64,000 nucleotides of DNA from Ditylenchus dipsaci (lineage: Eukaryota; Nematoda; Chromadorea; Rhabditida; Anguinidae): the NCBI GenBank assembly GCA_004194705.1, contig SADC01001153.1, positions 186,001 through 250,000 on the forward strand, written 5' to 3'. Below the pieces are notes generated by a model. It worked only from the letters and a program-made list of their open reading frames with translations, was not told the origin of the DNA and ran no database searches. Within the stretch, counting starts at the first letter, position 1. Each line of letters opens with the position of its first letter. Below, piece by piece: positions 1 to 55,829 of this stretch. The translations under genes were made by a program, and so were the position numbers.

Positions 1-2420
1 GAAAATACTGAGGTGGAGCTATGGTTGGACAGGGAGCAGCAGCACAAGCTGTTTGGAGGGAGGACAGCATAGATGAGATGGTGGAAGAGGAGGATTTCTT
101 TCTTATCAGGTTGCTAAGTAGTTTTGAAGGCGAGGTGCTGATAGGAGAGCTGTTTGAACGGGTAGCATCTGCAACAAAACAACACGCTACTCAACACATT
201 GAAAATCTATTTAATTAGGCTGCTAACAAAAGAAGCTACATTTGGTGGGTGTGCAGCAATAAAAACAAAGTGAAACTGAAACAAAAGACAACATGGATAG
301 GAAGTAATGCAACACGGACAATAGATCGCAAAGACAAGTGCATTTTGCGCCTGCTTCACAAATAATATTTTTGCGTGGACAAAGATAATTGGTCAATTTA
401 ATTTGCTGCCTGTTAATTTTTCTCTCTATTTCTCTCTATCCATTCTCTACTAGTCTATCTATGTTAATCAAGAACCTTCAGCTTTAAAAATGATCTTGAC
501 AGTGATTAATTTCGTGATGGCTCGTTTAGGAACCCGGAGTTGGAATAAAGTGCCAAATGCTGCAACTCCGGGTTCCTTAACTCTCGAATCAGGCATTTGT
601 TTTGCTGACTTCATTATTTCAACAACCAAGCCAGAAAAGTTTTTTTGGAAAGTTGGAAATTTGCGAAGAGGAGCAACCAACAGCAAACAATATTAGACCA
701 ATCAAACTTTGAAACAAAAAATTTAACACCCAACAAATAAAATATAATAAAGTGCATAAAGGTGAAAAAAAGTGAAACACATGCACAACACCCACAACAA
801 ATAATGACAAGTGCATTGAAAATATTTGTGCTCATGCATGTTTCATGCGAGAAATACTTTCGGACACCCAAAACAAAGAAGGTGGAGGAGGAGCAATGAT
901 CACTTACTTGAAGGGTATTGAAAAGTGAAATGCCAGTGTTCGTCCACCCTTAGAGTTCTGCCTGTAATCCTAGCATAGAACTCGTAGCACTCTCTGGGAA
1001 ATAGATTTGTGTAGCCAAAGCCTTGGATTATCTTCGAAATGACTTGAGAAGCCATTTTGAAGCGCATCACATCCTCTAATTTCGCCTAAATTTTTATTAG
1101 TTAAATAAATGGTATTATAAGATGGCGAAAGGCTAACCCACCCTTTGACCATCGTGTATACACGTGTGGAAAAGTGAAGGAGCCACAGATATGCCTACAG
1201 CATCTGGTGTCATTCTAGTAGCAAATGTTTCAGCTGAGTCAGTTATTATTCGGAACGTGCCGAACAACAAAACTAGTAAATGTTGCGAGGGAACTGACAG
1301 ACTACATATAACCCTAAAATAGAAAATTAATGAGACTGGATTTAATGTATGAAAAAATAAACCTGCAGAACACTTGTCGTTGAGCTTCATCATCCGATTG
1401 CTGCATTATACTGAACAATTGCTTCTCGTTTTCTACACCAAATATCCGCCAGGCAACTTAGCGAGGAATTTCTTAAATGAATTTACTATATTACAATTGA
1501 AAACAAAAGTTATGAGCTAACCTTGATGACAGAGGCAGCTGTGTACACACTGATGTTACTTATGTTGACCAGTCTCCCATGCTGCATGATGTGAGATAGT
1601 TTTCTTACTTGTGCCTGATTCCCGGGGCTCGCCATATATCCTTTTTAATGGACCTAAATGACAGAAAGAGTGTTTCAGTAAACCTTATTCACTTTGTGTT
1701 TCAGTAAATCTTTTACAAAGGCAACCTACCTTCTTTGTTAACCTTCAACAGTAGAACCTTAAAAAATATATTTAAAATAGTTTTAAACTGACAAAACTCA
1801 CTAATAAAGTGGCGGGTATGTCGTGAGAAAAAGCCTCACTTATGGGTACACCAAATTTAACCTTCTCAATCCTGAAATAGGGGAACGTTATTACTGTAAT
1901 TTTGTTTGTAATGATAACGCGCCTCTAATAAGTAAATTCCCCGCTCCGTCATTTTTTAATAGGATTTCAAAGTTAAGCCCATAATATTTTCAAGGGTTGA
2001 AAAAAGCTAATATTTAAATCTGATGACAAAATCTTCAATTTTGCTGAAAAAATTCAGGCGACAAATTTAATTTTGCAATCAGATTTAATTTGGCAGCATA
2101 CGACACCAATATTTTCATAAGCTATTTTAGTATAAACCACCAACCTGCCACGATACCGATGTTGTTCATCTGTTCCACATATCACCTGCGAAAAACACAA
2201 TAACTAAGTTAAATAGTAGAGTAAAAGCGACTAACCATTCCGTAGGCCGCCACCGTCATATCTAAATTTTGTAAAAATAAATTAGAAGACAGGAGTCTAA
2301 ATGATACCTGGTATAGTGTGTCGACGAATGTAGAGTGAGTCGTTTGGCTCTTCTACTACAACACCCCTTCGTCTGCTCCTATTGAAGGGCGACGGGGTGA
2401 AGAGGAAGGGCCGGAAAAGC
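1..2420 (-). CDS. RhoGAP-domain protein, GAP-domain and C-terminal exons (gene continues off the left edge)
   Basis: GTPase-activating protein for Rho-family GTPases, by domain. Exons in transcript order: 2308-2420, 2236-2261, 2145-2185, 1802-1871, 1730-1757, 1522-1653, 1363-1471, 1142-1313, 908-1085, 1-168 (open at the edge). All junctions are GT...AG and agree in phase. The domain opens with FGVPISEAF. The arginine-finger loop reads DIWRAPGNQAQVRKL once two missing bases in 1522-1653 are allowed for. Then come SVIKKFLAKLPGGIFG (one missing base near 1440) and RMTPDAVGISVAPSLFHTC. A conserved-looking segment, GFGYTNLFPRECYEFYARI, follows, then a serine-rich, basic tail. Exons of 26, 28 and 41 nt are microexons. 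The catalytic Arg is present, but the Asn usual in the NLAVVFAPN motif is replaced (DAVGISVAPS). The RhoGAP assignment is firm; the subfamily is not resolved. Confidence 0.88.
169..907 (-). other. Intron of the RhoGAP gene
   Basis: Intron of 739 nt between the exon ending at 908 (donor read on the minus strand) and the exon starting at 168. It holds a short foldback at about 528-576 (GGAACCCGGAGTTGG and its complement). No other feature was seen. Confidence 0.7.
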
Positions 2421-4138
2421 CTTCAGGAAATAACTTTACTTTGGTGCGGGTGCTAAAATTGAATAATTGTTACAGCTTCGACTCTTTCGACCCTTTTTTA
2501 TAATGACAGGACATTGAAAAATTTTCATTTATGAATTTAAGTGATGGTTTTAGTTTTAATTGATGGTTTTAGCAATATAGAGATTTTATAAAAAGTCAGT
2601 TCTTTTTAAAATATTTAAATCTCATATATTCCTAAAAGCGTTCAGTAGACTTTTGAAAAATTGTAAGAAAGCTAAGATCCAGAGTTATATGCTATTGCAA
2701 AAAAAAATAACAAAAATTGCGGCCAAAAATTCAGATAACAATGATAAAATAAAATTTACTCGTGACATTTAAAATTTTGAGGGCGCAATACAATTTGATC
2801 CGTTTAACGAACAACATACAAAAGGTATAGGGACTTTTTGCCCTTTTTTGACTTTGTCAAAGGAGGGCAAACCGCTAATTTGTGCCTTGGTGCTCCTGTT
2901 GATCTTTTTGCAAATTTTTATTTTCTCTAAGTAGGTCATTAGCTACTTATGAAAGACTGACAGTATTCTGCCGGCATTTTTTCTTAGTTTTTTTCAAGCT
3001 GCACTCCCAAATTGAGAATTCAAACTCTCAGTCCACACCCTCATTTGGGACACCTGAATTCTAAAACCTCATTCAGATCCTAAGTCTTACTTGGAACCTT
3101 TACCATTTCCCAATAGGAGAATGAGGTTTGGAGTGAGGATCGAAATAATTAAGATTTTAGTGATGGTTTGTATTTCGACCAGTTCTATTTTTACAAACCT
3201 TCACTCTAACCACTCAGTCTCAAAGCAAGTCTTCCCCAATTTTTCAAAAGGATATATTATTGTTTTTGAGTACAAATTATGAATTTTTTATGTGTAATAG
3301 TGTAGTACTTTTAAGTTATTTTAAAGTAAAATCTACCAGTGTGTACCCGATTTGCAAAATCAGCTGAAAAATACCCAGTTTTCCTGATTCTAAATACCCG
3401 GAAGGTACCCTAACCATCCAGAAAGAACCTAGCCTACCCCGAGGGTATGGAAATTATCTCAAGAGTAACTAATCCATCCAGAAAATATTTAAATCATCCA
3501 TATGGTACTTAAGCACCAGGTGGGTAGCCAACCTTAGTAGAAAGTACTGAAATAGCCTGGAGTGTACTTGAACAATCAGGCAAAGGGACAAAGACCAAAC
3601 TTTCTCATCTTCATATGCGTTTAAATCGGCATCCCGTTGAAAAAATTACAAAATGGTACGATGTTTAAGGTGCAATCCTTCTTTTCATCAATCATTGCCA
3701 TAAAACATCTCATGGCTCATTCACCTACTTCGAGTTCAAAGTCACTTTTTGGGGGTTTTACTAAGAAAAAAGAACAAAGAAAGGGTTTAAGTTATACACA
3801 TCAACGCCTTCAATTTAGACCTCGCACTCGAACTCGAAGTACGTGAACACCTTCGAGTTAGACTTCGTGTTTAAGTTCAAGTTCGGATCAGAAGTGTTAA
3901 CGTAGCCGAAAATCCAAACTCGAAGTACGTGAATGAACCATTACGAAATCGTTTTTGGTACATTTAGGTACGGTTAAAATTGCAAAAAAAATAATCAACA
4001 GGGACCAAGGCAAATTAGCGGTTTACCCTTTTTACATTTGTCAAAAACGGCTAAAACGTCTACGCACCATACAAAAAAGTTCTGTGTGAGAACAGCTGTC
4101 TTTATAAAAAGAGTCGACTGTTTATTTTTGTTATTTAC
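2421..4138 (-). other. Intron of the RhoGAP gene with repeats
   Basis: Intron of about 1.7 kb. It contains a degenerate run of short units with the theme ACCCGGAAGGTACC / CATCCAGAAAG at about 3380-3560, and a palindromic element at 3711-3941. Nothing else is recognisable. Confidence 0.55.
3711..3941. mobile_element. Foldback element, CTTCGAGTT family
   Basis: The ends are inverted copies (ATGGCTCATTCACCTACTTC against GAAGTACGTGAATGAACCAT). The interior repeats GAACTCGAAGTACGTGAAC motifs on both strands. It belongs to the same family as the elements at 18539-18829 and 55941-57589. No coding capacity. Confidence 0.7.
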
Positions 4139-7100
4139 CTGACTACCTTCACTGAACTGCTTCCTCTCCTACTGCTACTATTGGCTGCTGCTTTTGCTGG
4201 CCGATATGGGTTGGAGGAGAGTCGCTTCGATGGCGATGTCGACGACGTTGGTCGGTCAACAAGAAGCGGCCACAACCACAATTGGAAGCACTACTATCGT
4301 CGTTGGCTGAGGTGGAAGCTTTCTGGAAGACCTCTTCTTGATTTACTTTTTCCTCCAAACAGTCTATACTTTGTGGAGATGGAAGCGGAGAAAGGGTTGT
4401 TTTTTCAACTAGTGGCACTTGCTCTAGTGGAAAATAAAGTGGAGAACTATTGGAAAGTTCTCCACTGGCTTGCGGTGATTTAGTTGTGGGAGACTCTGGG
4501 GCAGTGTTTAATGAGGGACTGCAAAAAAACAAATAATTGGAAGCTGACTAACTTTAAACTGACTTAGAGAGGTAAGTGGTTTGCTCTTGCAAGGGGATGT
4601 GAGTTGACTCAACTGGAGCTTCTTCAAGGGTTCTATTGATTGTAGAGACTGGTATTGCGATATCACAGTAACCTCAGCAAAGTCTTCTTGTTGAGGTAGT
4701 GGCTGACCAATATCCGACGACTGGTCGACTGTTTCCAATTGGCTGTAAACCTCTGTTGTTGATGAAACCTTGCGTGGATTGGTGTTGCCAAGTTTATGTT
4801 TGTGCTCCTCAAGTAGTTTGGAGAAAAAACTAAAATGAATCTAGTTTACAGTATTTAGAAGATTTTTTATTAATGGTTATTTATTTACAATGGATCACAA
4901 GAGAACCATTAGAGCTTGTTTTCCCTTGTAAATGAAGCAGGTCTCATTGAATAGCCATGTCTGACTTTAAATAAAAATGCTAAGATCTCAGGCCAATGGC
5001 CGAATATTGGAACTTTTGCACGATTATTATATAAATGTAGGGTGAGCCGAGAAATTCGGCCAATTTCAAACGACCATAACTTTTTTCTTTCCACAATCTC
5101 GAAAAACGGCTGAGTTTTATCTCGGCTCCAAAACTATTTGGCATCAAGACGAAAGAATTTTTTTTACAATTTCTCAACTTTATGCTTGATTTCCCGTGTA
5201 GATCGGCCCACAACCATCTTAACTTCAAGGTAAAGTACAGGTCCTGAACCACTAGGAGGGCAAGCGAAAATCATGTTTCCGATATCCTATAGTTTTAGGT
5301 AAAAAAGTGTTCATTTGAATTAAAAGAAGGACGCGAATTTCAAGAAGTTTTTGGTTTTAATTTTTATGCAATTTATGAGAGCAATAAATAACAGCTTACC
5401 CTCTGTGCTGTTGAAAGACTGTTTTCGGGTTTTGAATACCCTCCTTACGATACGCGGGATGGTTGTTTGTCTGCTCTGATGGCTGTTGTTGTTGCGATAT
5501 AGAAGTTGTGGAAAGAGTCGAAGCAGGTCTATTCTCATTGCCGCCCAATCTCACATAAGAAGAGCAGGTGGAGAACGCCTGGTTGGGGAATAGGACGACG
5601 AGGTAGTAGTAGTTGAAAAGGCACCGACCCCACCGCCAAGACTGTGTTTTTCTCACCTCTTGACTGACTACTGCTAACTACAGTGTGCTGCACAACTACT
5701 AATGGAGTTGTTGCTGTTGTGGCGGGGGCTGCTAATGAGACACTGCTCACCTTTCGATAGGCTTGCCAGAAACCTCGGTTGTTTTCTTTGGCTGAAATTT
5801 TAGAGATCTTTAAAAGCGCTATTCAGGTAAGAGGGCAACCAGGAACCGCAATGATGCCGGACATAGATTGAAACTTGGAGACATTTTAGTGGTTTTTAAT
5901 GTCTGATTCCTTTTTACTATTCATTAAACTAACACGAATGTCCAAATGCATGCACTTGGCGTGCTCTTAGAATTATAAAACAATGCCTGTAAGATATCCT
6001 TAGAGCACGCTATGTTTTACTATAGTTAAAGGGATAATCACGAAAGAAAATGGTGAAAAGTACAACCGCCAACGCAAAGATATTTTCTAATACGGAGGAG
6101 AGTGTTAATTGAATAGTGGAGCTACAACTCACTGTATTTTCTCTAATTCCATCCCGTGGTGAAATTTTTCATACTCCGAAAATCGGAAAAAAAAACTTGA
6201 ATCGATGCCGAGATTTTTGTGTGATGATACAAGATCTAAAAAGCCAAGTCGGTAGAGCTTGTGGGAGATAAATATTCTGCAAAATAATGACTCTGCTCTG
6301 ATATATAGACTTTTAAATTAGGAAGAGGGGGAGGGTGGGCGTTATTAGAGAAGATATGGTAATTAAACCATGCCTCATGCTCAAATTTTACAGAAATTCG
6401 GTGGGTGCTCCGCCACAGTTAGAGAGTGAGTGATTAATAACTCGGAAAGGTGGTGAACAAACTATCTCTAGATGGATGGAGCTTCTAGATGGAGCTTTGG
6501 TTCTTTTTGGTTATCGGGAATACCCGACCTCAGTCGTGCTAAGACAATTTATGCGTAAGAATCGGGTATTCCCGATAACTAGGGGTGAGTGATGGGTAAT
6601 TACCCGGGTAATTCTCCGGTAATTACCGGGTAATTACCCGGAGAAATACTAAGTATTTCTCCGTAGAGAAAAATCGGAGAAATACTATTTTTAGTATTTA
6701 TTGCTCGGGGAGGCAATATTTACTTCCTAATTATGCAGGAATCACTTCCCGTTTGAGCCATGCTTTTCCTTTACACTACTGGTCTCCTTTTAAACGTCGA
6801 AGGTTCGACTCCCAGCTGATACATTTTTTCATTATTTTATTTTTCTGCGATACCTTCTTCATTTTTACGCTGATATATTTTGAATATTTTTATTTTACAA
6901 GTATAATTGCTTTCTTCATAGACAATTTAATGGCAATTATGGTCGACAATATCACAATCGCCACTAACCATTAACTTTTTTATCTTTTTTTTCAACCATT
7001 CACTTTTTTATCACTTTTTCACCATTCACTTAATCCACCTACCCTACTCAGCCAGAAATTTTTTGGTTTAGGTATCATCCAGATGGTTTAGGTATCATCT

Positions 7101-10100
7101 AGGTGTTTTAATTAATATCCAGATGGTTCGGGTACTATCCAGGGGGTTTGGTACCATCCATGTGGTTTGGGTACCATCCAGGTGGTTGGGTAATATCCAG
7201 GTGTTTTGAGTGATATCCAGATGGTTTGGGTACCATTCAGGTGGTTTGGGTACCATCCAGATGGTTTAGGTATCAGCAAATAGTATTTCTCCGCTTTCCG
7301 GGTAATTACCGGTAATTACCCGGGTAATTACCCGGGTAATTACCCGGAAAGTATTTCTCCGGAGAATTACCAACCCTACCGATAACCAAAAAGAACCGGA
7401 GCTTTTTCATAAACATTGGCGTTAGAGTCGGAATTTTATTATAAACGCATTTTTACTCCGACGCAAACGACGACCCTTTTGTGAAAAATCCGGTGTGTTG
7501 ACGTTGTACCTTTTGTCCCATTATGTCCCAAATCTGTATTTTCATGAAACCTCATAAAAGCACCAAAATATTAGTCCCAGCCCAGATTATCCCGTAAAAA
7601 GTCCTAACATACGCTGGCCTAGCCCTAAGCTTAAGTAGTTAGAACAAAGGGTATTTCCAGAATGGGACAAAAGGTACATAATGTCAAGGCTATAAGTGAA
7701 AATACCCGTCGAAATATGTGAATCTCCCGTCAAATTTATTTTTTACCCCGTCAAATTCAAATTTCAAACAAAATATGTAAATCTCCCGTCAAATTATGTG
7801 AATCTCTCGTCAAATTTGAATTTTTAGTCAAATACTGCATTGAATTTTGCGGAATTCGAATTTTATAGTCAAAATATAACTGGATCGCTCAGAATACCTC
7901 CCCGGAGTGGCCAGAAGCCCCTGAAAGTTGGTTTTTTGAGGGTTCACTAAAGGGGGAGTAAACTTTGGCGAAAATTCGATTAAACGGATCAGATTTCCAG
8001 TGAGATGAGCTGAATCGCTCAGAATTCCATCCTGAATCATTCTCAACGATCTGAAACCACCCTAACCCATCCTAAATTGCTCCAAGCCAGTATCTAAGTT
8101 TTCTAAATCAGTGCTTAGGGTGGTTTCAGATAGTTGAAAATGATTCAGGGTGGCATTCTGAGCGATTTAGCCCATCTGACTGGAAATCTGATCCGCTCAA
8201 TCGAATTTTCGCCAAAAGTTTACTCCCCCTTTAGTAAACCCTCAAAAAACCAACTTCAGGAGCTTCTGGCCACTCCGGGCAGGTATTCTGAGCGATCCAA
8301 GTTATTTTTGACTATAAAATTCGAATTCCGCAAAATTTAATGCAGTATTTGACTAAAAATTCAAATTTGACGGGAGATTCACATAATTTGACGGGAGATT
8401 CACATATTTTGATGGTGTTTCAATTTGAGCCTAATGTCAATACCACAAAAATCCAATTTAAATACCTACAATGCCAACTCCTACTTCAACCATAACTCCC
8501 TTATGGCGTTTGATTAAGGTAGGATTTGAAGTTGGCTATGGCATTAAAGCTGGAGTTGGCATTCTAGTCATCTTTGGCGTTCGAGTTAAAACTCCTTTAT
8601 AACTAATTTTACTCCCACGAAAAGACGACGCCAACGCCGATGTTAATAAAAAAAGCTAAAGCTATTGCTTTGCTACTAAAAAGTATGGACAATATTGTGG
8701 CTTGGTCGAGCCAAATGAACAACGCTGGTTGTAAAAGGCGGATCAACCACTATTACCTTTGCTTTTGAATAGAGAGTGTGGTGTGCGATCAGTAGACTCA
8801 CTGCCTTGCTGCTCTTCTGGTTTAGGATCAGCTTCTCTGGCTGCTTTTATGCGCTTGCACTTAAATCTGGCACCTCCACCAGCTGTGAATTCAGTTGTAG
8901 CTGGTGCAGCACGATGATGCTGTCTGGAAGGATGCAAAGACACTAATGGCAAAAACAGTTGAGAAAGTGACTGTCGATGTCGACTACTAGCGGGCACTGC
9001 TCCGATAGTGTTGTTGTGTTGTTGAGAGGATCTTTTTGGTTTTCGACCACCGCCGCAGACTCTGCAAATAAACTGAGTATTAGTTAGTGCAATAAAAGAC
9101 CACGTAATCATTCGTCCAAAGCACCGAATATCGAAAAATGTTTTAAATTTAGATTAGCAAAGCCGCTTATTAGATTCAAGATTGAAATTTGACTCATTAA
9201 GTTTTCAAGATATCGGTAATTTAGCAAAAGGAAAAAGTATGATAATATCAGGACAATTACCGGACCGCATTTACTACCATTTACTACAAATTAATCTTGC
9301 TACAAGTGGATCACTTTTTTAAAGTGACTAACAAACATATAAATTTAATAAATAGTAAGTCCATACAATGATAATGTTAACAAAGCGGTTTTGCTAAGAA
9401 TTGTTGCAAAAATGCGATTAACACACCACCAAATATTTGAGAAGGAAGAGAATACAAATTTAGCAGGCTGGCTGGCTCACCAACCACTAATCCTCCCCTA
9501 GTGAGTGGGTTAAGGAAGCCTTTAAAGGAGCTTTCTTCTCACAAATAGTGTGGTGCTGTAAACTAGTGCTACTACAAGCATCACCGGAAAAGAACAGAGT
9601 ACAAGAGACTAAGTGGAGAAAGAGCAAAAAGCTTTGCCAAATCCGCCAATTAGAGGATAAAAACAAGCACATTAGGCAAACCCACGCACTTTGTCAGAGA
9701 ATGGGGATGCAGAGAGTGCATATAGGTAGACAGGGAGAGAGCACTGGCAGCAGCAGCAACACATGGCCCCTCTCTGCTCAGCCATTTGTTAGAGGGGCAG
9801 AGAGAGCATTCTAAAATTATAGAGTAGAGAAATCAAAGCGCAAAGCGCACCACACACACAATGCCAAGTATCCCTCCTTTCGACTCTTTTAAAGAAGTGG
9901 TAAGCGTTCATTTAAATTAAATGTTTGATATGAAACTTTCAACAAAAAGAGATTGATGCAAAAGGTGATACAAAAAAGAGGTGGAAAGCGTTCGTTTAAA
10001 TTAAATTTTCTGATAAAAAAGTTATTGGAATTTAAAAATTAAAAGTTCACGGTTTTTCGAATTTCGATTCGATTAGAAAACCCGAGTGCCTGACCTCTTT

Positions 10101-13460: not shown

Positions 13461-13463
13461 CTG

Positions 13464-19560: not shown

Positions 19561-19576
19561 TTGCAAAAGGAGCCTA

Positions 19577-20007
19577 TACAGTCGCCTCTCGATATAACGG
19601 CACCCCCAAAAGTTCGTTCCCGCCTAGGGTCCGACACTTTTTTTACCTCTATTTTGAAGTCTTTTGCCAGTTGTCTTTGGCTAGTCTAGTTGGAAATATC
19701 GCAAGGAATCCGATTTTTCCGGTCGTTTTTGTAAATAGCAACAGTTTTGCCAAAAAGACCCGCGCCTCTCCATATAACGCCACCCTTTTTGAAAATTAGG
19801 TGCCGTTATATCGAGAGGCGCGGGTCTTTTTGGAAAAACTGTTGCTATTTACAAAAACGACCGGAAAAATCGGATTCCTTGCGATATTTCCAACTAGACT
19901 AGCCAAAGACAACTGGCAAAAGACTTCAAAAATAGAGGTAAAAAAAGTGTCGGACCCTAGGCGGGAACGAACTTTTGGGGGTTACGTTATATCGAGAGGC
20001 TACTGTA
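19577..20007. mobile_element. Pogo/Tigger-like MITE, long perfect hairpin (TA target)
   Basis: About 430 nt, TA-bounded: TACAGTCGCCTCTCGATATA ... TATATCGAGAGGCTACTGTA. The arms share AGTTCGTTCCCGCCTAGGGT and GTGTCGGACCCTAGGCGGGA and fold back at about 19797. The same subterminal block is found at 42071, 42038 and 48596. Confidence 0.88.
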
Positions 20008-20556
20008 TTAGGAATGACGTCTCATATGCCGCCTAGAATAGGATTTAATCCAAATAGATACTGAATGTAGCACATGAATAAGAGTTGTAGCCAGTGTTGT
20101 AAATCTCAGAATTGCGGCACCGGCACCGGCTCACGGCACCGACTCTAAAATTTTTGGCGCCGGCACCAGCTCACAAATCACTTGATTCGAGTGCCGCTAT
20201 AGAGTGTGGGTCCGATTTTATTTTACAAGTAAGTCGTATTGTAGCCATGAGCCTTAGCTTCAAGACGTGCCTCCACTCATAGGCTAAAAATAAATTTCAA
20301 ATCAAATAATTTAAAAAAATGGCAAACTATACAAATCGTATTATTGCTTGTGTCTTAAGCCTAATTGCTAAAATTAACAATAACTAAGAATTATCTCGCC
20401 TGCATCTCAAGCTATGATAGGGGTGACGCTAAAGGCAGTTGAGTTTTTGTGGAAGTAAAAATAGTGTAAATGTTCCACAAAAAGTCACACCTGAAAGCGT
20501 TAATTTCTTCTTATTTTTGTTATATTTAACGATACAATTAATAAATAAAGAAGAGT

Positions 20557-27587: not shown

Positions 27588-28510
27588 ATGGAAGAAGAAT
27601 CTAGTAGCATCTCTTCTTCAGGGAGCACGGTAGTCATTCAATCTGATCTTTTTTTTGCACGTGACATCCACTTTTCAGTCTGCCGTTCTTCAGCGACTAA
27701 CTGAGCAAAACCGAGCCATGCTGAGCCGAGCCGAAGACTTGTTGAAGACGATGAGCGAATCTATGTCCGAGTATTTCTCAATAAAATCTTTTCGATTTGT
27801 GAACGAGATCGATAGTTTCGTCGCATGGATTGAAAGGGAAATCGAATCGGTATGTTCACGCTCTGAATTTACAATAGACCAACATTTATTTCAGTTGGAC
27901 TGTGAGATCACCGAGCTTGAAAGCATTAATTTCTCTTCGGAAGAAATTATTGATTTTGGGGTGAGTGTGGAAGAGATTGGTGACATCGAAAGCCGAATTT
28001 TCAAGCATGTTGAGAAAATGGACAAGGGATGTGAAAGAGTCTCTAAATTGAAGGCCGAGGTATTTTAAAGCCAATCTATCGTTCATTTTAACAAAGTCTC
28101 TTTGCCTTTGTAGTTGGACTCTCTGAATGCTCAGGCTGAAGCTGTGAAGACTAAGCTTATAAGTCAGCAGATATCGGTGATGGCTACGACGGTGCGAGGT
28201 AGCTTGCAGCATTTGTAGTAAATTGGTCGACTCATATTAAACTTTTAGACCAGAAAAGTTTGTCTGCATTTACAGCCACATCTACTTCACATCTGTCGCT
28301 TCCTTCTGTAATGCTTAATGGATCTGAAATCGTTGCTGAAGATCTGATAACGGCTATTGAAAATCTCCACCTAACTAAAGAAGATGTGAAGACCGCAATT
28401 GAGGTGCTTGGGTGATCGATGACAGTGAGAATCTGAAAACAGCCGTGGAGTATCTTGTACCGGATCAAGAAGATGACATCAAGACCGCCATAGAATGCTT
28501 TTCCAATTAA
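27588..28510 (+). CDS. Small coiled-coil protein, unrecognised
   Basis: Five exons: 27588-27629, 27679-27849, 27895-28059, 28114-28198 and 28249 onward, with introns of 49, 45, 54 and 50 nt and matching phases. The second intron is a multiple of three without a stop and could be retained. The product starts MEEESSSISSSGST, then has heptad-like, Leu/Glu/Lys-rich helix (for example LQRLTEQNRAMLSRAEDLLK). It ends with three related segments of the pattern D-hydrophobic-TAIE-hydrophobic (ITAIENLHL, VKTAIEVLG, LKTAVEYLV). A TGA at 28413 interrupts that series, and the series resumes one frame over to TAA at 28508, so one base is probably missing near 28411. A cytoskeletal or scaffold role is only a guess. 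Confidence 0.72.
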
Positions 28511-38166: not shown

Positions 38167-38172
38167 TTTATT
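38167..38172 (-). promoter_or_regulatory. Poly(A) signal AATAAA of the minus-strand gene
   Basis: AATAAA on the minus strand begins 12 nt past the TAA codon at 38184. Confidence 0.75.
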
Positions 38173-38183
38173 AAAATAATCTT

Positions 38184-41100: not shown

Positions 41101-43489
41101 TTTCTCGTATTTGACAAAACTCGTATTCGTAGAATTTAAATTCGTGTTCTTGGCGTTGTTATTTTGGCCCATTTTCGAAGTTTAGTTTTTGGTAAGTCAC
41201 CACTCATTTTGTAGCCAGTAAGATAAGCTACAAAATGAGTGGTAACTTACCGAAGAGTGAACTTCAAAAGTTGGCCGAAATAACAATGCCAAGAACACAA
41301 CTTCAAATTCTGCGAATACGAGTTTTGTCAAATACGAGAAACGCGAATACGAAACGGCCCTCTCCCATTCTTAGTTACCTGTCTGCCAATAAGCAGCTTT
41401 TTGAGCAAGTTCATGTAGTAGTGGCGGATGTAATGGTCATATAACACTCTTCTGTGGTCCCTCAACTGCACTTGGTCAGCAGCATGCGGAGCACTAAAGT
41501 ACCCAGCTGAAAATAGTTCAATTTTGTATGGCGTTTTTCTTAATCATGTTAAACCCCACTTTTGATTTTCAGAAAGACTTTTGATATAGGGCTTCCGAAG
41601 CAGAAGCTTTCGTTATTAGTAAATGCACAGTCTAGCACTTTGTCTTCTTCTTCTCTGGATGAAATAGGAAGTGGCAAGAAGCGCTAGAAGGTCTTTTTTA
41701 AATGTTTTTATGTTAATGTGTAAATGTTCTACCCTAAGGCGTTGACGAGCAGGTTCAGACAGTGACCAAAACGCAGATTTCTTCATTACGTTCCGGAATA
41801 ATGTTTCCTGAAATTTAAGGATTGAGACTATCAAGCTTTCCTATTTCTGGCAGCATTTGCGTATTTCCTTTTTGTAAGGCACATCCTCCGAGTCTTACCT
41901 ATTAGAATTTTTTGGTTTTGGTTAACATGCGAAAAACTGGGATAGATCACGAAGTTTCTCGGTTGTGGTGGTCTGAAAAGTAAGGCTCCATGAGGCCTAA
42001 TTAGAGAAAAACGGCCTTCGATCATTTTTTTTTCTTATACAGTCGACTCTCTATATAACATAACTCTACATACAGTCAAACCTCGATATAGTGGCCCCCA
42101 CCTCAAGTTCGTTCCCACCTAGGGTCCGACACTTTTTTTAACCCTGTTTTTGAAATAATTTATTGATTATGTTATGACAGTCTGGTCGCAAATATCGTAA
42201 GGATTCCGATTTTGCCGATCGTTTTTTAATAACTAAATAGTTTTTGCATTTAAAAAGCAAAACCTCGATATAGTGGCCCTCTAATTTTTTTAAGGGGGCC
42301 ACTATATCGAGGTTTTGCTTTTTAAATGCAAAAACTATTTAGTTATTAAAAAACGATCGGCAAAATCGGAATCCTTACGATATTTGCGACCAGACTGTCA
42401 TAACATAATCAATAAATTATTTCAAAAACAGGGTTAAAAAAAGTGTCGGACCCTAGGTGGGAACGAACTTGAGGTGGGGCCACTATATCGAGTTTGACTG
42501 TAACATAATTTTAGGGTCAGAAGTTCGTTCCCACCTAGAGTCCGACACTTTTTTAACCTGATTTTTGAGGTTTTTTGCCAGTTCTATTTTTACAGTCTGG
42601 TCCCAAATATCATAAGGATTCCGATTTTGCCGATCGTTTTTTAGAAACCTGTAATATTTTGGTCTAAAAAAGCAAAAACCCCATATAACATAACTCGATT
42701 TAACAAAAATCCTGTTTTTTCACCAAGTTTTTATTGTTTTAAAGAATTTTTTTTGAATTTCTAAAAAAATGATTGGCAAAATCGGAACCCTTGCAATATT
42801 TGGGACCAGACTGTCAAAAGAGAACTGGGAAAAGCTTGAAATGACCGGTGTAAAAAAGATGTAGAATCCGGTAACTTGCTCGGTCCTTGAGTTATGTTAT
42901 ATAGAGAGTCAGCTGTACTATTTTATTATTGTACCTGAATTATAATTATCAGTATTTTTGATTTAAATGACTGAAATTTTAACGTAAATCTCTCAAAGTA
43001 ATGGCTTGAGAATTTGCGGTGGTTATTAATTTAACGAAAGTTTCTTTCACGACCAAAATTATTTATAAATTGGAAAATAATTTAATAAAAAACTGACATC
43101 ATTGATCAAAATGTCAGGCACTTCCACCATTTCGCCTCCCAAACACAACCTCGAACTGGGCAGCATTGGACGGAGGTTAAAAGAGGTTGAGGTATTAGAA
43201 CTGGAAGCAGAGCTCTGTACATTTCTTGCATCCAAGCTTGCCTTTTGGGTGCTTTGCTCGCTCTTGGTGCGCGCGTGTTTTGCCTTCGCTGGATTGGCTG
43301 TTTGGCCAAGCTGGTAGCAGTAGGTGAGAGAGGTGTTTCCTTGTCCATTAGTAGCTTGTTCAACACAAACGCTGCAGAAAATCAGTTGGCAGGAGCTGAA
43401 TTCAAATATATTTCTGGCATTTTGTCTGCATTAATGCCAAAAACCATATGTTCAATTTGAATCAGCTCTATTTGGCGCTCTCTGAGCAT
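38184..43489 (-). CDS. Multi-exon gene of unknown family, divergent from FAF1
   Basis: Exons: 43098-43489, 41899-41996, 41579-41807, 41379-41506, 40902-41032, 39964-39995, 39889-39915, 39774-39845, 39588-39670, 38184-38516. The start ATG at 43489 has an in-frame TAG two codons upstream. From 41506 onward all splice phases agree and the frame is clean to TAA 38184-38186. The first exon (MLRERQIELIQIEHMVFG...) needs one missing base, near 43384, to stay open to its donor and then has exactly the right phase. The frame of the exons at 41.9 and 41.7 kb is uncertain. Features: a Ser/Thr/Gln-rich N-terminus; an aromatic helix (VLYDHYIRHYYMNLLKKLL); a basic stretch (KKRLMGAKALQKRANIRAKK); an acidic patch (SSEDEED); and a C-terminal half rich in short helices. 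I do not recognise the family. The basic and acidic blocks suggest, weakly, a nuclear protein. Confidence 0.72.
39071..39310. mobile_element. Foldback MITE in an intron
   Basis: GTCGCGTCAAAAGTTCTGTT is mirrored near 39285-39302. The tip carries ACTCATTTTGTAGC / GCTACAAAATGAGT. It lies in the intron 38517-39587 of the unknown minus-strand gene. Confidence 0.8.
41075..41366. mobile_element. Foldback MITE in an intron
   Basis: GGGCCGTTTCGTATTCGCGT at the left and ACGCGAATACGAAACGGCCC at the right, with ACTCATTTTGTAGC and its complement at the tip, as in 39071-39310. It fills the intron 41033-41378. Confidence 0.85.
42038..42917. mobile_element. Pogo/Tigger-like MITE (outer), interrupted by a second copy
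   Basis: Outer ends TACAGTCGACTCTCTATATA and TATATAGAGAGTCAGCTGTA, TA-bounded. The subterminal AGTTCGTTCCCACCTAGAGT block follows the inner insertion. It lies in the large intron between the exons at 43098 and 41996 of the minus-strand gene. Confidence 0.85.
42071..42502. mobile_element. Nested pogo/Tigger-like MITE
   Basis: TACAGTCAAACCTCGATATA ... TATATCGAGTTTGACTGTA, nearly perfect arms of about 200 nt folding at about 42287. It is inserted at a TA of the outer element only 33 nt from that element's end. Confidence 0.9.
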
Positions 43490-43778: not shown

Positions 43779-46700
43779 ATGGATGACATGCATTTGAATG
43801 AAGAGCAATCAGCCATTTTGCAACAATACAAGGTAGCACTGAAACTGGTGAAATATCTGATTTTGAAATTGTTTTCTGCAGGAAATACTCAATGAAAGTG
43901 ATGATGATATGGCGAGAGCCACACTTGAAAGTCTCGGCTGGGACTTGGCAAAAGCCATTGAGGCTAGTTCAGTCACTGACAATTGCGCTACCACTGGCAG
44001 TAAAACGCCAGGTGTAGTAGATTTGACTGGTGGAGAAGACGCGTTCCCGTGAGTTGGAGGGCGGAAACTGTACACCATACAAGAACACTTTTTAGACAAT
44101 ATGAAAGGATGGACACACACGATGCTTCAGTGCAGATCATTGATGAACCCAACCACGATCACGACCTACTCTTTGCTAGGCTCAATGCCAAAGTCAAGAT
44201 GGAAAATGAAGATCCCATGAAACCAGTAATTATTGACAGCAAGCCAAGCTCTTCCTCCTTTGTAAGTAAAAAATCATTCAAGAATAGAGGTGCAGCTCAG
44301 GCAGACGAGCTTTCGCTAGATTGCTATATTACAAGCGATTCTTCTAATGGATTACACAGAAAAACTTCTGGGGAACGAGTTGGTAAGCTAACGATGATTA
44401 ATAATTGTTTTTGGTAATAAGGCAGGATTTGTTTAGATAGTGGCAGTGGTTCAGTATGCTCATTGTCTAATCCAGCACAAGCTTCTACTTCAGCAACTGC
44501 TGATGTGGTGGTTATTGGTGGTAGTTCGGCCGGTCCTTCTTCCATGGCCGACAAGAATAGGTGAGTTAACAGTTTCAAATATATTCTGACCTCGATAAAA
44601 GGCTATTTTTTCGACCCGAGTGCAAAATGGGCCTTTTTTTTGGTCCATCATGCTATTTTTTTTTAATTTTAGAAGCAAAGTTTTCTAATTTTACCAATTA
44701 TTCTTATCAAGATTTTATGTTTGTATTTTTGATTAGATTCGATAATAGAATATTTTGTGCAGTCAACTATTCTATTACTAATTTATATGCTGGCCAGCAC
44801 CACTAAAACGAAACAAAAAATTAAAATTGTGTGATTAATTTTAGCCGCAAGGAAAAGAAACGTTGCAAAATGTCTGGTAGTGACAATAAAGAGGAAGTTT
44901 CGGTTACTTTCGAAAGTGAAGAAAGTGATCAAGATGATGTGGAGGACATGGATGACTCAATTGTCTACCTCACTGATGAAGATACTAAGAAGGAAGACTC
45001 TCCAAATGTGGTAATTGCTGGATCAACTTAGTTATTAAAACCAACCCTTGTTCCAGTCTTTCAATGACCAAATTCCTTGATGCCCACAGACTTTTCTACA
45101 ATTTCTGAAGCCATGCAGGTAAAATTTTTACTGCTTATCATGGTCAGCTGTCGATACAGTCTATATTTTATTTACCGCAGTGAATGGATATGGTAATGCA
45201 TTCGTGCAATAATTCCGCGGGAGAAGATCCCACGGTAGAAAATTCAGCGGGACTTAAGTTTTTGAAGTTCCTGCTTGGGAAAACCCAAATTCTGACACCG
45301 GATTCGTGTTCAGCATGGTCGCTTACAGATTAATTTTTTGAATATAAATTTCAGTCATAGTTTCAATTTCATCTCGAGACAAAAAAAACATTTGAAAAAA
45401 AATTCAATTTTTTAATTTGACAACGAGTTTTAGATTTGAATGTTGCTTTCAAATCTAAATCTTCAAATCTCTATCTTCAAATCTCTTTCAAATCTTCAAA
45501 TCTTTCAAACCATGTATGCAATCGATCATGCTAAACACGAATCCGGTCTCAGAATTTGGTTTTTCCCAAGCAAGAACGTCAAAATTCGAGCTCAGCGGAA
45601 TTTTCGCTTGCGGAATCTTCTTCCGCTGAATTTTTTCCCGCGGAATTTTCTCCCGCGGAATCTTTTCCTGCGGAATTTTCGCCTTGCCCATATGACGAAT
45701 ATATCATTATTTTTTTAAAAATATATCAAGGGCCAGGTCGATTTCTGCATTAAGTAAATCTCCGAATAAATACGTTTTGACAAAAAAAAAGGCAGAAAAA
45801 AATTAAGCCAATCTAAAAAAAACAAAAAATTATTGGGGAGCTAACGTTTTTTTATTTATTCTGTATGTAAACTGTACCGAGAGCTAACTATGGTCACTTT
45901 TATTTTTGCTTCAAATTACTCTCATAATAATTTATATCACATTGCAGAACTTTACATCGGTCTTTGAAGCCAGGTCAGAGGGTTTCACTTTACTTGAAAA
46001 ACTACAGTTTTTTTAGATATGGCGGCAACTTCGCTCCATTCTTTCAGGGTAGTCTGCAAGCAGCTTTGGCTGAGGCTTTTGACACACCCGGCGCAATGCA
46101 GTTGTGCGTAGTGCTATGGAGCGTCGTCCCTTAGCAATCTACCTTCACAACGATACTTCTATTGCTAGCAATATTTTTGCTCAAAATGTAAGTTTAATGA
46201 ACAGTTTGAAGAGTTACAAATTTCAACTGATAAGAATATGTAAAATTTATTTAAAAAAAATTATTTTAAATAATTATTAGTTAATTTTGATTCAGGTGAT
46301 GTGCTCTGAATCCGTCAGCTCTTTGCTCAAGTGTCAATTTATTATATGGGCTTGGACATGAGCCAGAATGAAAATCGGCAGAAGCTGTATGATTGGCTCT
46401 CTGCTTCGAACATGACGGATGTGTGCCAGAACATTAAGACTATCCATCGCTCCAAGTATCCTCTGCTGGTCGTTCTTGTAAAGGACCGTCTGAACATTTA
46501 TCCGGCTACTGTCATCAAAGGCATGTCTTTCGATTAATTCTATTTAACATTTTTATTGGATCTTATTTGTAGGACATGATGGAGCGGCACAAGCTGTAGA
46601 AAAGCTGATGCAGGGGCTTGACATGTACCTACGCATAAAGAACAAAGACGTTGCTGAGGAGCAGAGTCGTCTTGAACGAGAGCAAATTCGTCAGGAACAG

Positions 46701-47224: not shown

Positions 47225-47225
47225 A
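47220..47225 (+). promoter_or_regulatory. Poly(A) signal overlapping the FAF1 stop codon
   Basis: AATAAA occupies 47220-47225 and includes the TAA stop at 47222-47224, implying a 3' UTR of perhaps 10-30 nt. Confidence 0.65.
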
Positions 47226-48590: not shown

Positions 48591-48595
48591 TAAAG

Positions 48596-49035: not shown

Positions 49036-49125
49036 TAAGTATCTTCCACATTAAAATTTAGTAACCATCATTTATTTCTTCAACATTGGTATACTTGTGA
49101 AAATATAGACAGAAAGATCATTGAT

Positions 49126-49903: not shown

Positions 49904-49916
49904 AATAACAAACGGC

Positions 49917-49922
49917 AATAAA
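49917..49922 (+). promoter_or_regulatory. Poly(A) signal of ATG10
   Basis: AATAAA starting 14 nt after the TAA stop. Confidence 0.7.
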
Positions 49923-49924
49923 AT

Positions 49925-51500
49925 AATTGTATTATATCCCATGACTATGCTAAACCAATATTATTCAATAAACTTCTCGAAGAAATGGGATCAAAGATTT
50001 AACAACAAAGCATTTTTAGCAACCCATAACAGAGATCATTGATAATTTTAAGTGAATTACATCGACATATAGATTAAGCTCTATCAGTTATTGTTTTCAT
50101 TAAGGTAAGGCTGAGAACTGCCTCTATCCACGCTTTTTTGGTCTGTTTTCTTTTACAGGATAGTATTTCTAAAAATATTTAAAAAGTGTGTTGGCTGGAA
50201 AAATAGCTAAAAAATTAATTTCATTAACAAATTTAGCCTAAACCTTAGAAAGACCGAGATACTTTTTATGATTTTTTTATCGTGATTATAGTATTTTAAC
50301 AAAAATCTGCTTCTAAAATAAAACATTTCTAGAAACCTTTTCATTAGACCTGGAATGAGGACTTGGTCTTCCACGTAGGGTGCTGAATCGAGTGTTTGAT
50401 TCTGAAATTTTCTCTCAAAAATTCGAAATATTTCTAATTTTGAGCGGAAATTTCAAATTACGGATCGAATTTCGAGTGCTCTAAAAACTTCGACTTTGGT
50501 TTGAGCACTCGACTAGAAAATTTTGAGCGCTCGATAACCCTACCTTAAAGGCGATTTTTGAAAAAAAAACACAACACTTCGTTTGGTATTTGTTCGCTAC
50601 TAGCGCCTTTTTCCCTATTAATACACTCTTGTGTGCCGTTTGAAAATTAGTTGAAGAAACAATAAAAGAGACTTCTGATATACAAAAAAGTAATAGCCCG
50701 GATGCATTGAAATACAGGTTTTACGGCGAAGAATTGCGCTACTCGGTTTTACCCCTCCCAATAATTTTTAGGCTTAGCCTTTAGGTTCAGTCCTCAGGCT
50801 TTGGCTTAGGCTTTAGGCATTAGGCTTAGGCTCAGGGCCAAACCATCACTAATTCCGGTTTTTATTTTTAAAAAGTATGCTTTTAGATAGCCCTAAAAAA
50901 TTATTGGGAGGGGTAAAAGCGAGCACCGTCAAATTCTTTGTTGCGTGACAGAATATTTTTAAAAGAAAATGTTGGGCGACATTTTCCCTTTTTTGTTTTT
51001 GTCGGGCGACATTGTCGCTTTTTTTTCGTGGCACTGGTAGCACTCGACATGTTCTTTCTCAAAAAGCTTGACGCACGGAAACTTTAATAACTGGAAAAAT
51101 GAATCTGAAATGAAAATGGAAGACATCTTTCTACAAACTGGATGATAGATTCTGAAAAAAAGGAGACAATGTCGCCCGACAAAAAACAAAACAAAAAAAA
51201 GAAAATGTCGCGCGACATATTTTATTTAAAATGGACATTGTCATGCGACAATTTTTTTTAAAATGGACAATGTGCGGGCTTTAATAACTGGATGGTTTAA
51301 TCGATGGTTTAATAATCCGGGCTCTGATTTTCCCACAGTGCTGAACAAAAACAATTTTTAAATAAAGTACCTTATGAACTGTAAGCTTTTAAGCATACCT
51401 TTCTTGCATCCACGAAATCCAGAAAGGTAAGGGATAAGATGTTGATTATGGTGGCCCTTAATAGTTCATTTGATATTATAGTATTGTTGTTGTTTCTTTG
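49925..51500. other. Convergent intergenic region with a foldback
   Basis: Lies between the 3' ends of ATG10 (plus) and PIGA (minus). It contains GAGTGCTC/GAGCACTC words at 50390-50530 and a foldback at 50692-51322. No gene seen. Confidence 0.45.
50692..51322. repeat. Inverted repeat with GTCGCCCGACA words
   Basis: AATAGCCCGGATG at the left faces AATCCGGGCTCTG at the right. TACCCCTCCCAATAATTTTT (50750) matches AAAAATTATTGGGAGGGGTA (50895). The centre repeats TGTCGGGCGACATT and its complement. Confidence 0.65.
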
Positions 51501-51504
51501 TTAT

Positions 51505-51510
51505 TTTATT
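51505..51510 (-). promoter_or_regulatory. Poly(A) signal of PIGA
   Basis: AATAAA on the minus strand, 2 nt after the TAA codon at 51513-51515. Confidence 0.7.
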
Positions 51511-51512
51511 GA

Positions 51513-54500
51513 TTACCACGCCCAAATTAGTCCGAAGAAAAAGCCGGCTGATATAAAACTGAAAACGAATAGGTTATAAAAGCATTTGATTTCCAATAGA
51601 CTTACTTATTTAGTCGCGTACTAATAGATACAACCGGGCTTTCCATAACTAATTTGTACACAAGATCTGTTCTTTCCTGCATTTTTGAATTTTTTTAAGA
51701 TGCACAAAGTAATTGTTTTCTTACTGCAATATCTGACCAGTGATACATAAGAGATACATCATTGTGTTTTTCTATTGGGTTGACCAGTTGGTTCGTTTCA
51801 CGCCATTTGATTGCTTCCAAGACAGCCCCAGAGATTTCTACAATAAATTTATAGATTAAATTTACAAAAGAAAATGAATACCTGCTGGATTTGGCTCGGC
51901 CAATGTCATGAATTTTTTAGGCAGAACTTCAGGAATACCGCCTACGTTAGTGGAAACAACATGAAGACTAAAGTTCGATATTATTTTAATCAAAGCCGAA
52001 AAATTATTTGAAAAATGTATTTTCTCGGTTTTGATATACTTACCCACAAGATGCCGCTTCTACGATACTCATGCAAAATGCTTCCGTTAAAGATGTGTTA
52101 AGAAATATTTGACCCTGTACCAAGGTTTCTCGCACCTTAAAAACAGCACCACATAACACAAGTATTAGGCAACAGTACATTTCCGAACACAGTAACATTT
52201 TGATACACCAATCTCTTCTCACGGCTGACCTACTCCCGAGACGAATCGTGACAAAAAAAATTGAATTCAGATTCCTGGTGCCGAGAAATCTCTGAATCCA
52301 TCAAAAATTTCTCACTTTAAAGGAGGGTGAAAGCTGTTAAGGAGATAGTCTCTACACGAAAGGGTCATTCCAAGTTTTAGGTTTTTTAAATATGGTTTCG
52401 GAGCCATATTTTGTCGACAATCCGGCGTTGTAGTTCCAGACAATCTTGTTCAAAATTAAAAGTCCGCTTAGCATCAGCAATATCTGAATTCAAAAATTCG
52501 TTCAAAAAATGTCCTAACAAGCGAAATTTAACAAGAGACTAATCAACCTTTTCTCGATGGTTTTTCTCCTTTCCTTTTTCCGTTTTTAGGGCATTTTTCG
52601 AAATATTTCCAAAATTTTGATACTGATGATGCTGATACAACTTTTAATTTTGCACAAGTTTGTCCGACATTGCATCACCAAGTTCTCGACAAAATATGGC
52701 TCTGAAACCAAATTTGAAGAACACAAAACTGGGGTGAATCCTTTCGTGTCGAGACTATCTCCTTAATAGCTTTCACCACTCCTTAACACGAGAATGCCCG
52801 ATCGTAACTTCTGCCTTTTCTAAAAGAACTTTTCACGCTGATTCTCGTGGTGCCAATTTTTTTCAATGAACAATCGAAAAAGTTGAGAAAAGAGCTTTTC
52901 GAAAATTGTCTAAATGACGTGATCCTATGATATGTTGTTCGAAAGCAAGAATAATTTTTCGTAAGACATAGCTATGACTGTGATATACCAAAATGACCGC
53001 TAAAATCTGCTCTTTCATATCAGTGTATATGAGTAGCAACCTGTCTGCAAAAAGCTGGACAACCAGCGTTCAACACAAAAAACCACTATTTTCTTACTTG
53101 TCAAATTTTCACTTAAAGCCGCTCGAGAGCATTTAGCTTTTAAGCAATTTAAACGAAATTTTCATGCATTCCTCTCAACAAGACAAGGCTAAAAAATCTT
53201 AAAATACACATTGCCTTCCAAGTACTGCTTACACGAAAAAGCACGACCACCCTGTCACCTATCAAGGATCCTTATATACCAAAAGGTAGCCCTAACTGAA
53301 CTTGTTACTGATCCGGAAATCAAATTTTTTGTGTGTAAAACTTTTTATAATGTTGCTAGATTTCGGATTTTTCAAAGTGTGATATCTCGCCCTGGACTGC
53401 TCCATAGGGAATTTAGATCAGTAACAAGATCGATTATGGCTATCTTTTGGTATGTAAAGATCCTTGATAGGGGACAGGGTAGTTGTTCTTTTACCGTGCT
53501 AGGTAAGTTTGTGATCACATTTCTATCCACTGTAAATTTCCAAAAATCGATAATGACAATTTTAAGTTTTTTAAAACACACACGGAAAAAATCTCTAGCT
53601 TTTTGGGAAGATTTTAGGGAATTCGGGTGTGAAAATCTGAAATCGTTTGCCAAATTATTCTCAGGAGTGGGCTAGCCTTGGAATAGTAAAGTCTATTCTT
53701 GAATATTTTCAAAAATGTGTGGTAGCCTAACTAGTTAGCGTGATAAACTAACCTTGTTATGCGGTAGGAATCCAAGCATAACTACTCTATTGTGCAACTT
53801 GAATTTTTCAAGCATTTCTTCTAACTGTATTCTCTTAGGACCATCACCACCGATTAAAAAACGAACAGTCGCATGACGGCGACACACTTCTGGGATCACC
53901 TAAATATGCGCAATGCTAAAAGACATTTTTCGCGTCGGTGTATATTTTCTGATACATTTTCAAATAAATATGAATTTTATTCCGAAAACACAAGCAGACA
54001 ACGTTTTTGACTTCCTCTTTGGATTTTGATAAATCCATAAGAGATCCTGAAAGTATGTGATTTTAAATTTTGTCCTTCTGCCCAAAAAATATAGCCAAAA
54101 CAAATAGGCAGACTATTTGAAGCCCATCGCACTCCAAAATTGCTAGCGAAGTGACAACAAAAACAAAACCCTAAAAATATATTCCCTAATATACCCTAAA
54201 AACGTTTCATTGTATTTGCTGCATTTACCTAAAAATAAATTTAATGCGTTACATGAATATTTAGCATTCGGAGGGCCGAGCGGCGGTCAATACCTCGTTG
54301 GACTCAGAATTTCACATAGATCATTTTTCAAAAATATATCTACGGGTGTTTGGACGGGTCAAGTTCCCAAAAAAAAGTTTGAAATAGACAACCATTTCAA
54401 GGAAAGTGAATAATTTTCCGAGAGGCGCATATCACTTTTATGCAGACCACATTCGTCACTATAATATGTCGAAATAATCGTGAGAATGTGTTTCTTTGGA

Positions 54501-55829
54501 ATGAGTGTACTTGAGCTGAAATCTGTTTGCAGAAATTTGGACAAGCAGCGTCCAACACATCTCACCAGGTAAATTTACACTGCAAGCTGCTCGAAAGCAT
54601 GTCATAGCTGTGTATAACGGCTGGCTGATTGATCAGTATTAGTAGAGAAATTCAAGAACAATAATATAGTGCCGACGATCATTCTGACATATTACAGTTA
54701 TAGATGTGATCTGCAAGTGATGTCTTCCCCTCGGGAGATTATTCACTTTTCTCGAAATGGTCGTTCATTTCGAACCGGTTTTTGAGTGAATTGATCCGTC
54801 CAAACACCCGTAGATATATTTTTGTGAAATTATGAGTCCAACGAGGTATTGACCGCTGCTCGGCCTTCCGAGTGTTTAGAATAAGCCCACCTACATCCAA
54901 AAGCAGATCCGCCCCCTTGCGGTAGACCAAACGACAAAGAACCACCACAGTGGTTGGGTTGGTGTAAATAAATGTTTGTCTGGAGTGAAGAGGCATGTTT
55001 TGATGGCATTTGGTATCACAAAAACCTAATAAATTAAAAAAAGCGATGTTGGAGTGGATAGCTGCAGTTATGAAATCTTACCTTATTAGGCATTAATCCT
55101 GCCCGAAGAACAGTGTTTTCTTTACTGTAACGTTGAATTTGAAAAAATAAACGCTTCTCATTGAAATTTGATTTCAACCTTTACTTAAAGGTTGTTCCAG
55201 AAATTACCTTGTATGTGAAACACAGATAATTCTGTCAAGATTTACAAGAGAATATTTATCAACAGCTTGTTGATCAAAATAGCGGAGGCATCTGCAAACC
55301 CGTAGAGGAGTGGTCAGTGAAGACGGTACGTAAACCCATACACCACGCATGTAACAAGGCTTCATGAGCAAGAGCGGAAAAGGACTAAAAATTTGCCATA
55401 GAGCAACAGTCAAATTATTTTTTCTACTTTTTTCAATCTTATTGGCTTATATGAGCTCCTATTACCAAAATCGCTGTATTATGTCATATAAATGTATAAG
55501 TTTGATCAAAGTATAAGATCAATGCATAAACCCGATCACCTCCCTAAGCCGTCCACCTAAGGTAAAATCGACGTTAAAAGAACACTCGGGTCGACACTTG
55601 GGTCGACAATCATCGTGAACAAGCCTTAATTTTCTAACTTTTAGATTAAATGTACTGTCCTAACTATTTAAATAAAATGAAAAAATAACAATAGAGAAAA
55701 AATAACTAACAGAATGTCCATGCACAATTTGTATTTGCTCAATGAGAAATATTTTACGAAACCAGTACTGCGAACCGATTATTGAAGTCAAAGTGGTGTT
55801 GCAAAGCACAATCGTTGGTAATAATATAC
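51513..55829 (-). CDS. PIGA: PIG-A, GlcNAc-PI synthesis catalytic subunit (N-terminal exon(s) not found)
   Basis: GT4-type glycosyltransferase that adds GlcNAc to phosphatidylinositol, the first step of GPI-anchor synthesis, on the cytoplasmic face of the ER. Exons: 55711-55829, 55208-55384, 55082-55124, 54895-55025, 53753-53899, 52044-52135, 51882-51967, 51725-51837, 51606-51676, 51513-51558. Landmarks: [101 protein letters not shown], holding the EX7E motif; [12 protein letters not shown]; and a short hydrophobic C-terminal anchor ([14 protein letters not shown]). One base is missing in 55711-55829, two in 55208-55384 and one in 54895-55025; exon phases fit only with these. The N-terminal VSDFFYPNMGG region should lie upstream of 55829 and was not found. 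A 1.65-kb repeat begins 110 nt upstream. Confidence 0.93.
52325..52780. mobile_element. Foldback element in a PIGA intron
   Basis: GGTGAAAGCTGTTAAGGAGA at the left is mirrored by TCTCCTTAATAGCTTTCACC at the right. CGAAAGGGTCATTCC / GAATCCTTTCGTG lies inside. It is in the intron 52136-53752. Confidence 0.8.
53247..53492. mobile_element. Foldback element in a PIGA intron
   Basis: CCTGTCACCTATCAAGGATC and GATCCTTGATAGGGGACAGG face each other, as do TTGTTACTGATCCGG and its relative near 53418. An open frame running across it (53211-53675) is a by-product. Confidence 0.75.
54263..54879. mobile_element. Foldback element ending 16 nt from a PIGA donor site
   Basis: GCATTCGGAGGGCCGAGCGG at the left and GCTCGGCCTTCCGAGTG at the right, with AATACCTCGTTGGACTC and its complement. 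It sits in the 995-nt intron 53900-54894. Half of the same element is at 10938-11300. Confidence 0.85.

What the first reader, a model, noticed from the sequence alone, without database searches (positions are those of the whole stretch)
1..55829. Single-base deletions, and no clear insertions, across five conserved genes
Exon-phase bookkeeping gives exactly one missing base in FAF1 exons 45057-45118, 46017-46187 and 46296-46520. The same is seen in PIGA exons 55711-55829, 55208-55384 (two) and 54895-55025; RhoGAP exons 1522-1653 (two), 1363-1471, 8757-9061 and 5400-5791 (two); the coiled-coil gene near 28411; and the first exon at 43098-43489. Splice sites and protein similarity are intact on both sides of each break. 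I saw no clear insertion and no internal nonsense substitution. Five unrelated housekeeping genes decaying this way is implausible; uncorrected long-read consensus deletions fit best. ATG10 is clean. Gene predictions from this assembly would be badly fragmented.
Basis: partly seen in the sequence, partly recalled or inferred. Interest (0 to 1): 0.85.

Follow-up and report, generated by a model that had tools for sequence, protein, structure and literature searches.

The report
Missing bases from an unpolished assembly
The broken reading frames in this nematode window are most likely not biology: the long-read genome assembly dropped single letters, mostly inside short runs of one repeated letter, so intact genes look broken and get split into wrong gene models.

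Summary
The window belongs to a 226,978,389-base, 1,359-contig genome. A FAF1 match to Ditylenchus dipsaci and the assembly size point to the published strain E-105 draft: PacBio RSII, 42x, Canu, no base-polishing step described (PMC6929663). Frameshift-aware spliced alignment to relatives confirms ten of the listed breaks (four in PIGA, three in the RhoGAP domain, three in FAF1). Each fits one missing base. The other listed breaks have no homologue to test them. The same signature occurs elsewhere in the assembly. Five of 13 counted U6 RNA copies lack one base. Four canonical histone H3 genes carry 1, 4, 3 and 3 single-base losses, but every other aligned residue is unchanged. Three of four near-identical duplicated stretches differ by indels rather than substitutions: 54 to 6, 11 to 0 and 30 to 8; the fourth shows 3 to 7. 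Decay, programmed frameshifting and RNA editing do not explain this. It is an ordinary artefact and a caution for users of this assembly.

The parts
1522..1653 (-). RhoGAP-domain exon with two frame breaks, each fitting one missing base (about 1645-1648 and 1628)
   Evidence: 22 placements at 1628 and 10 at 1645/1648 over 22 relatives; Pfam PF00620
1363..1471 (-). RhoGAP-domain exon with one frame break near 1444
   Evidence: 21 placements over 22 relatives, one relative gave +1 at the same place
45057..45118 (+). FAF1 exon with one frame break near 45078
   Evidence: alignment to P0002
46017..46187 (+). FAF1 exon with one frame break near 46105
   Evidence: alignment to P0002, written as +2, the same phase change as -1; single-frame pieces match PF21021 9-34 and 26-56; PDB FAF1 chains
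46296..46520 (+). FAF1 exon with one frame break near 46356; the UniRef gene model starts at 46412
   Evidence: single-frame pieces match PF21021 58-77 and 76-131; P0001
49625..49768 (+). ATG10 active-site exon, in frame
   Evidence: PF03987 match without stops
54895..55025 (-). PIGA exon with one frame break at about 54959-54977
   Evidence: 41 -1 placements and one +2 over 42 relatives
55208..55384 (-). PIGA exon with two frame breaks, near 55309 and 55256
   Evidence: 42 and 42 placements over 42 relatives; Pfam PF08288
55711..55829 (-). PIGA exon with one frame break near 55820
   Evidence: 31 placements over 42 relatives

Best explanation
These are consensus errors of an unpolished long-read assembly. 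The genome is that of the stem nematode Ditylenchus dipsaci, very probably the E-105 assembly made from 42x PacBio RSII reads with Canu at permissive settings. In places the consensus dropped one base, usually inside a short homopolymer run. This shifts the reading frame of genes that are intact in the animal, and the gene predictor then splits them. Shown: the frame breaks, the same losses in a non-coding RNA and in histone copies, and indel-dominated differences between duplicated stretches. Inferred: that thin or noisy local read support is the cause, and that the animal's own genes are intact, since no reads could be mapped here.
For: Ten breaks confirmed by relatives, all fitting one missing base (sign test p = 0.002). 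U6: 5 of 13 counted copies lack one base, each in a homopolymer, none has an extra base. Histones: 14 one-base losses and one two-base loss, no gains and no stops in 14 genes or exons. Near-identical pairs, indels to substitutions: C842/C843 54 to 6 (49 at homopolymers), C1160 11 to 0 (all 11), C304 30 to 8 (28). Provenance: PacBio RSII, Canu, no polishing step described (PMC6929663, whole text). Two Illumina-corrected D. dipsaci assemblies have 64.7% and 62.4% complete BUSCOs against 49.7% for E-105 (PMC9984805, passages).
Against: Errors are uneven: the C1060 pair shows 3 indels to 7 substitutions, and all four H2B and four of five variant H3 exons are clean. At the start of C843 gains are nearly as common as losses, about four to five. 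Three of the five U6 losses share one site and may be a single inherited variant. In the 13 other copy alignments substitutions outnumber indels (425 to 196), as expected of true diverged copies. The H3 reference was itself read from these copies, so part of that identity is by construction. The contig number and size differ slightly from the published ones (1,359 against 1,394; 226.98 against 227.23 Mb).
Confidence: 0.97

Rival explanations
1. Genuine decay: FAF1, PIGA and the RhoGAP gene are pseudogenes or relaxed copies in this nematode and the frameshifts are real mutations.
For: Each of these genes is present with the breaks; searches with the FAF1 and PIGA regions found no second, intact copy of the exons beyond a FAF1-like paralogue of 66% DNA identity.
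Against: The exons otherwise keep high similarity (PIGA 258 of 360 matched residues identical to D. destructor), and the same losses occur in U6 and H3. Decay gives substitutions and gains too.
Confidence: 0.01
2. Programmed -1-type frameshifting, or RNA editing that restores a base, so that broken genes are decoded correctly.
For: All ten tested window breaks change the phase in the same direction.
Against: U6 is not translated. Break sites are largely different between four H3 genes of the same protein (position 16 shared by two, 39 shared by two, the other seven seen once). Duplicated DNA that is nearly free of substitutions differs in its indels.
Confidence: 0.01
3. Real allelic indel polymorphism of a heterozygous population, kept as separate contigs.
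For: The source was a mixed population and the assembly exceeds the flow-cytometric size of 160 to 170 Mb (PMC6929663). C842 and C843 also differ by a stretch of about 1.4 kb.
Against: Alleles normally differ mainly by substitutions (general knowledge); three of four pairs show the reverse, down to 0 substitutions and 11 indels. It would not explain frame breaks in conserved genes.
Confidence: 0.01

Closest known systems
Residual indel and homopolymer-length errors of long-read-only assemblies (only abstract openings seen in the listing: PMC8812927 Polypolish, PMC12007338 Kastor)
   Same: Single-base indels at homopolymers, frameshifts and fragmented gene models, hitting coding and non-coding DNA alike.
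   Different: Those papers treat bacterial or small genomes. Here it is a 227-Mb nematode draft, losses dominate at the tested interior sites, and regions differ in quality.
Programmed ribosomal frameshifting (recalled)
   Same: A phase change in one direction.
   Different: Needs a conserved slippery site in a translated gene; here sites differ between gene copies and a non-coding RNA is hit too.
Pseudogenes
   Same: Frameshifted conserved genes.
   Different: Protein similarity is kept on both sides; H3 copies show no other change.

Membership tests
Long-read consensus error | Near-identical copies of one stretch differ mainly by indels, not substitutions | tested here: met
   3 of 4 near-identical pairs (54 to 6, 11 to 0, 30 to 8); the C1060 pair not (3 to 7)
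Long-read consensus error | Indels concentrated at homopolymers | tested here: met
   49 of 54, 11 of 11, 28 of 30 and 2 of 3; the 5 U6 losses
Long-read consensus error | Hits non-coding sequence as well | tested here: met
   U6: 5 of 13 counted copies
Long-read consensus error | Accurate reads disagree with the assembly at the sites | not testable with these tools
   No reads are held
Long-read consensus error | Assembly made from noisy long reads without polishing | tested here: met
   PMC6929663, whole text: PacBio RSII, Canu, no polishing step described; the identity of the assembly is inferred from species match and size
Programmed frameshifting | Same shift site in copies of one gene | tested here: not met
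   Four H3 genes, eleven losses at nine positions, two positions shared by two genes each
Pseudogene | Missense and nonsense changes accumulate beside the frameshifts | tested here: not met
   H3 copies L034, L035, L038, L046: all 135, 132, 133 and 133 matched residues agree with the reference (read from these copies) and no stops; the diverged L063, 100 of 121, may differ. Not counted for the window genes

The most novel reading that the evidence does not exclude
A small part of the losses is real: the shared U6 site in L013, L014 and L015, on three contigs, could be a class of U6 genes or pseudogenes with a shortened run.
Probability: 0.05. Interest if true: 0.2.

Novelty: not a real feature. 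Interest (0 to 1): 0.1.

Why it matters
Gene models, completeness scores and counts of lost or broken genes taken from this assembly, and public protein entries derived from it, partly measure sequencing error. Anyone inferring gene loss or unusual short proteins in D. dipsaci should first check corrected assemblies or reads.

Tried and rejected
Led nowhere: Rfam and ARAGORN found nothing in the window. A literature search for '1359 contigs' listed one pig paper. The PDB search with PIGA found only distant TarM glycosyltransferases. The tRNA search gave places but no sequence, so tRNA copies were not compared. Genome searches for RF01960, PF00115 and PF00022 did not complete. Pfam on the non-conserved exons gave nothing above a cut-off except ATG10.

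Considered and dropped: a +1 at 46574 with P0001 is taken as an aligner artefact, because the intron there begins with GC and my program accepts only GT. The pieces the aligner attached to PIGA upstream of 55829 vary between relatives and are treated as spurious. L017 and L018 were left out of the U6 count as diverged (15 over the cut-off, 13 counted); of the 13, L009, L011, L012, L015 and L016 also carry substitutions. Of 30 fetched histone loci (L034-L063), 14 were aligned; the other 16 were not. Of the 120 PIGA hits listed (3,283 in all), 42 were aligned (P0004-P0045); of the 120 RhoGAP hits listed (138 in all), 22 (P0124-P0145) plus four short ones, which showed the 1628 break in 4 of 4. 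One search classified 17 alignments; four near-identical ones are the main evidence, the other 13 (subs 425, indels 196) are diverged copies or lie beyond the C842/C843 structural difference. One search used counts entered by hand; its total of 32 losses took 2 for C842 where searches support 3, so I do not rely on that total.

Full report
What was claimed. Single missing bases interrupt the reading frames of several conserved genes, with splice sites and similarity intact on both sides, and uncorrected long-read consensus errors explain it best.

Checking the sites. I wrote a spliced, frameshift-aware protein-to-DNA aligner that charges the same for one missing and one extra base, and ran it with relatives from the protein database. 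Over 42 PIGA relatives there were 159 such events, no one-extra-base event and two two-extra-base events, which are the same phase change. In the RhoGAP domain, 22 relatives gave 22 placements at 1628, 21 at 1444 and 10 at 1645/1648; there were a few stray placements, among them two of +1, one of them at 1444. FAF1 gave three breaks against P0002. Pfam agrees: single-frame pieces match consecutive stretches of PF21021 and PF00620, three of the six pieces below the curated cut-off on their own. The FAF1 pieces read together match human FAF1 chains in the PDB. That makes ten confirmed breaks in roughly 2.8 kb of conserved coding sequence (my own sum of exon lengths). The breaks claimed in 8757-9061, 5400-5791, near 28411 and in 43098-43489 have no homologue to test them; for 8757-9061 one frame is open throughout.

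Which genome. The window is G000:C1138:186001-250000 of a 226,978,389-base, 1,359-contig genome. A FAF1 query matched UniRef A0A915DM66 of Ditylenchus dipsaci, 100% over the 52% aligned. The published E-105 assembly has 227,234,012 bp, 1,394 scaffolds and a largest scaffold of about 3.6 Mb (PMC6929663, whole text). Contig C1198 here reaches past 3.46 Mb, longer than the largest contigs quoted for two other D. dipsaci assemblies, 1.47 and 0.72 Mb (PMC9984805, passages). I take the window to be from E-105 in a slightly smaller version. It was built from 42x PacBio RSII reads with Canu (in one of two runs, corMinCoverage 0 and correctedErrorRate 0.105), then merged, scaffolded and purged of haplotigs; the text describes no base-polishing step.

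Not a property of these genes. U6 RNA is not translated. Of 15 copies over the cut-off I set aside two diverged ones; 5 of the remaining 13 lack one base, each in a homopolymer, and none has an extra base. Three of the five share a site. Fourteen histone genes or exons gave 14 one-base losses, one two-base loss, no gains and no stops. Most telling are four canonical H3 genes on four contigs with 1, 4, 3 and 3 losses at nine positions in all: every other aligned residue agrees with the reference (135, 132, 133 and 133 residues). That reference was read from these copies and agrees with the recalled animal protein. The four H2B genes and four of five variant H3 exons are clean.

Copies of the same DNA. 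The start of contig C843 repeats an inner stretch of C842: 3,332 columns, 6 substitutions, 54 indels, 49 of them at homopolymers. An inverted pair on C1160 shows 0 substitutions and 11 indels, all at homopolymers; a pair on C304 shows 8 and 30. A pair on C1060 shows 7 and 3, so some regions are good. In the 13 other, more diverged alignments substitutions outnumber indels, as expected of true copies.

A correction. Insertions exist too. In the FAF1-like gene shared by C842 and C843, the C842 copy shows a one-base loss and a two-base loss, while the C843 copy, near the contig start, needs about five losses and four gains (read together with the base alignment). My inference is that contig ends keep raw-read errors of both signs while the interior consensus mostly loses bases; this was not tested with read depth.

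Consequence. The UniRef model P0001 begins at 46412, a methionine 56 bases after the last FAF1 break. The original paper reports 537 complete, 133 fragmented and 312 missing of 982 BUSCO genes. A later paper gives 49.7% complete for E-105 and 64.7% and 62.4% for two Illumina-corrected D. dipsaci assemblies, though strain and depth also differ and its authors call the range consistent with the first paper. One search of the held library for papers naming Mimee, Ditylenchus dipsaci and frameshift listed none, so I saw no printed warning there; most subscription journals are not held.

Verdict. An assembly artefact, well supported. Low interest as biology, useful as a caution.

Noticed in passing
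46521-46572: The FAF1 intron here appears to have a GC donor instead of GT.
   Followed up: partly
L075 and L076 (C842, C843): A second FAF1-like gene, 66% identical in DNA to the window's and 150 of 214 matched residues identical to P0001; the two contigs overlap and then differ by about 1.4 kb.
   Followed up: partly
42071-42502, 19576-20008, 52315-52784: Self-inverted foldback-like repeats; the one at 52315-52784 has many copies in the genome.
   Followed up: no
G000, histone search: Many histone-like matches carry one in-frame TAG each, which looks like a repeat or pseudogene family.
   Followed up: no
L013, L014, L015: Three U6 copies on different contigs lack a base at the same homopolymer: a systematic error or a shared variant.
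   Followed up: no
L026 and L027 (C1160), L072 (C304): Inverted duplications a short distance apart, differing mainly by indels; they could be real or an assembly artefact.
   Followed up: partly
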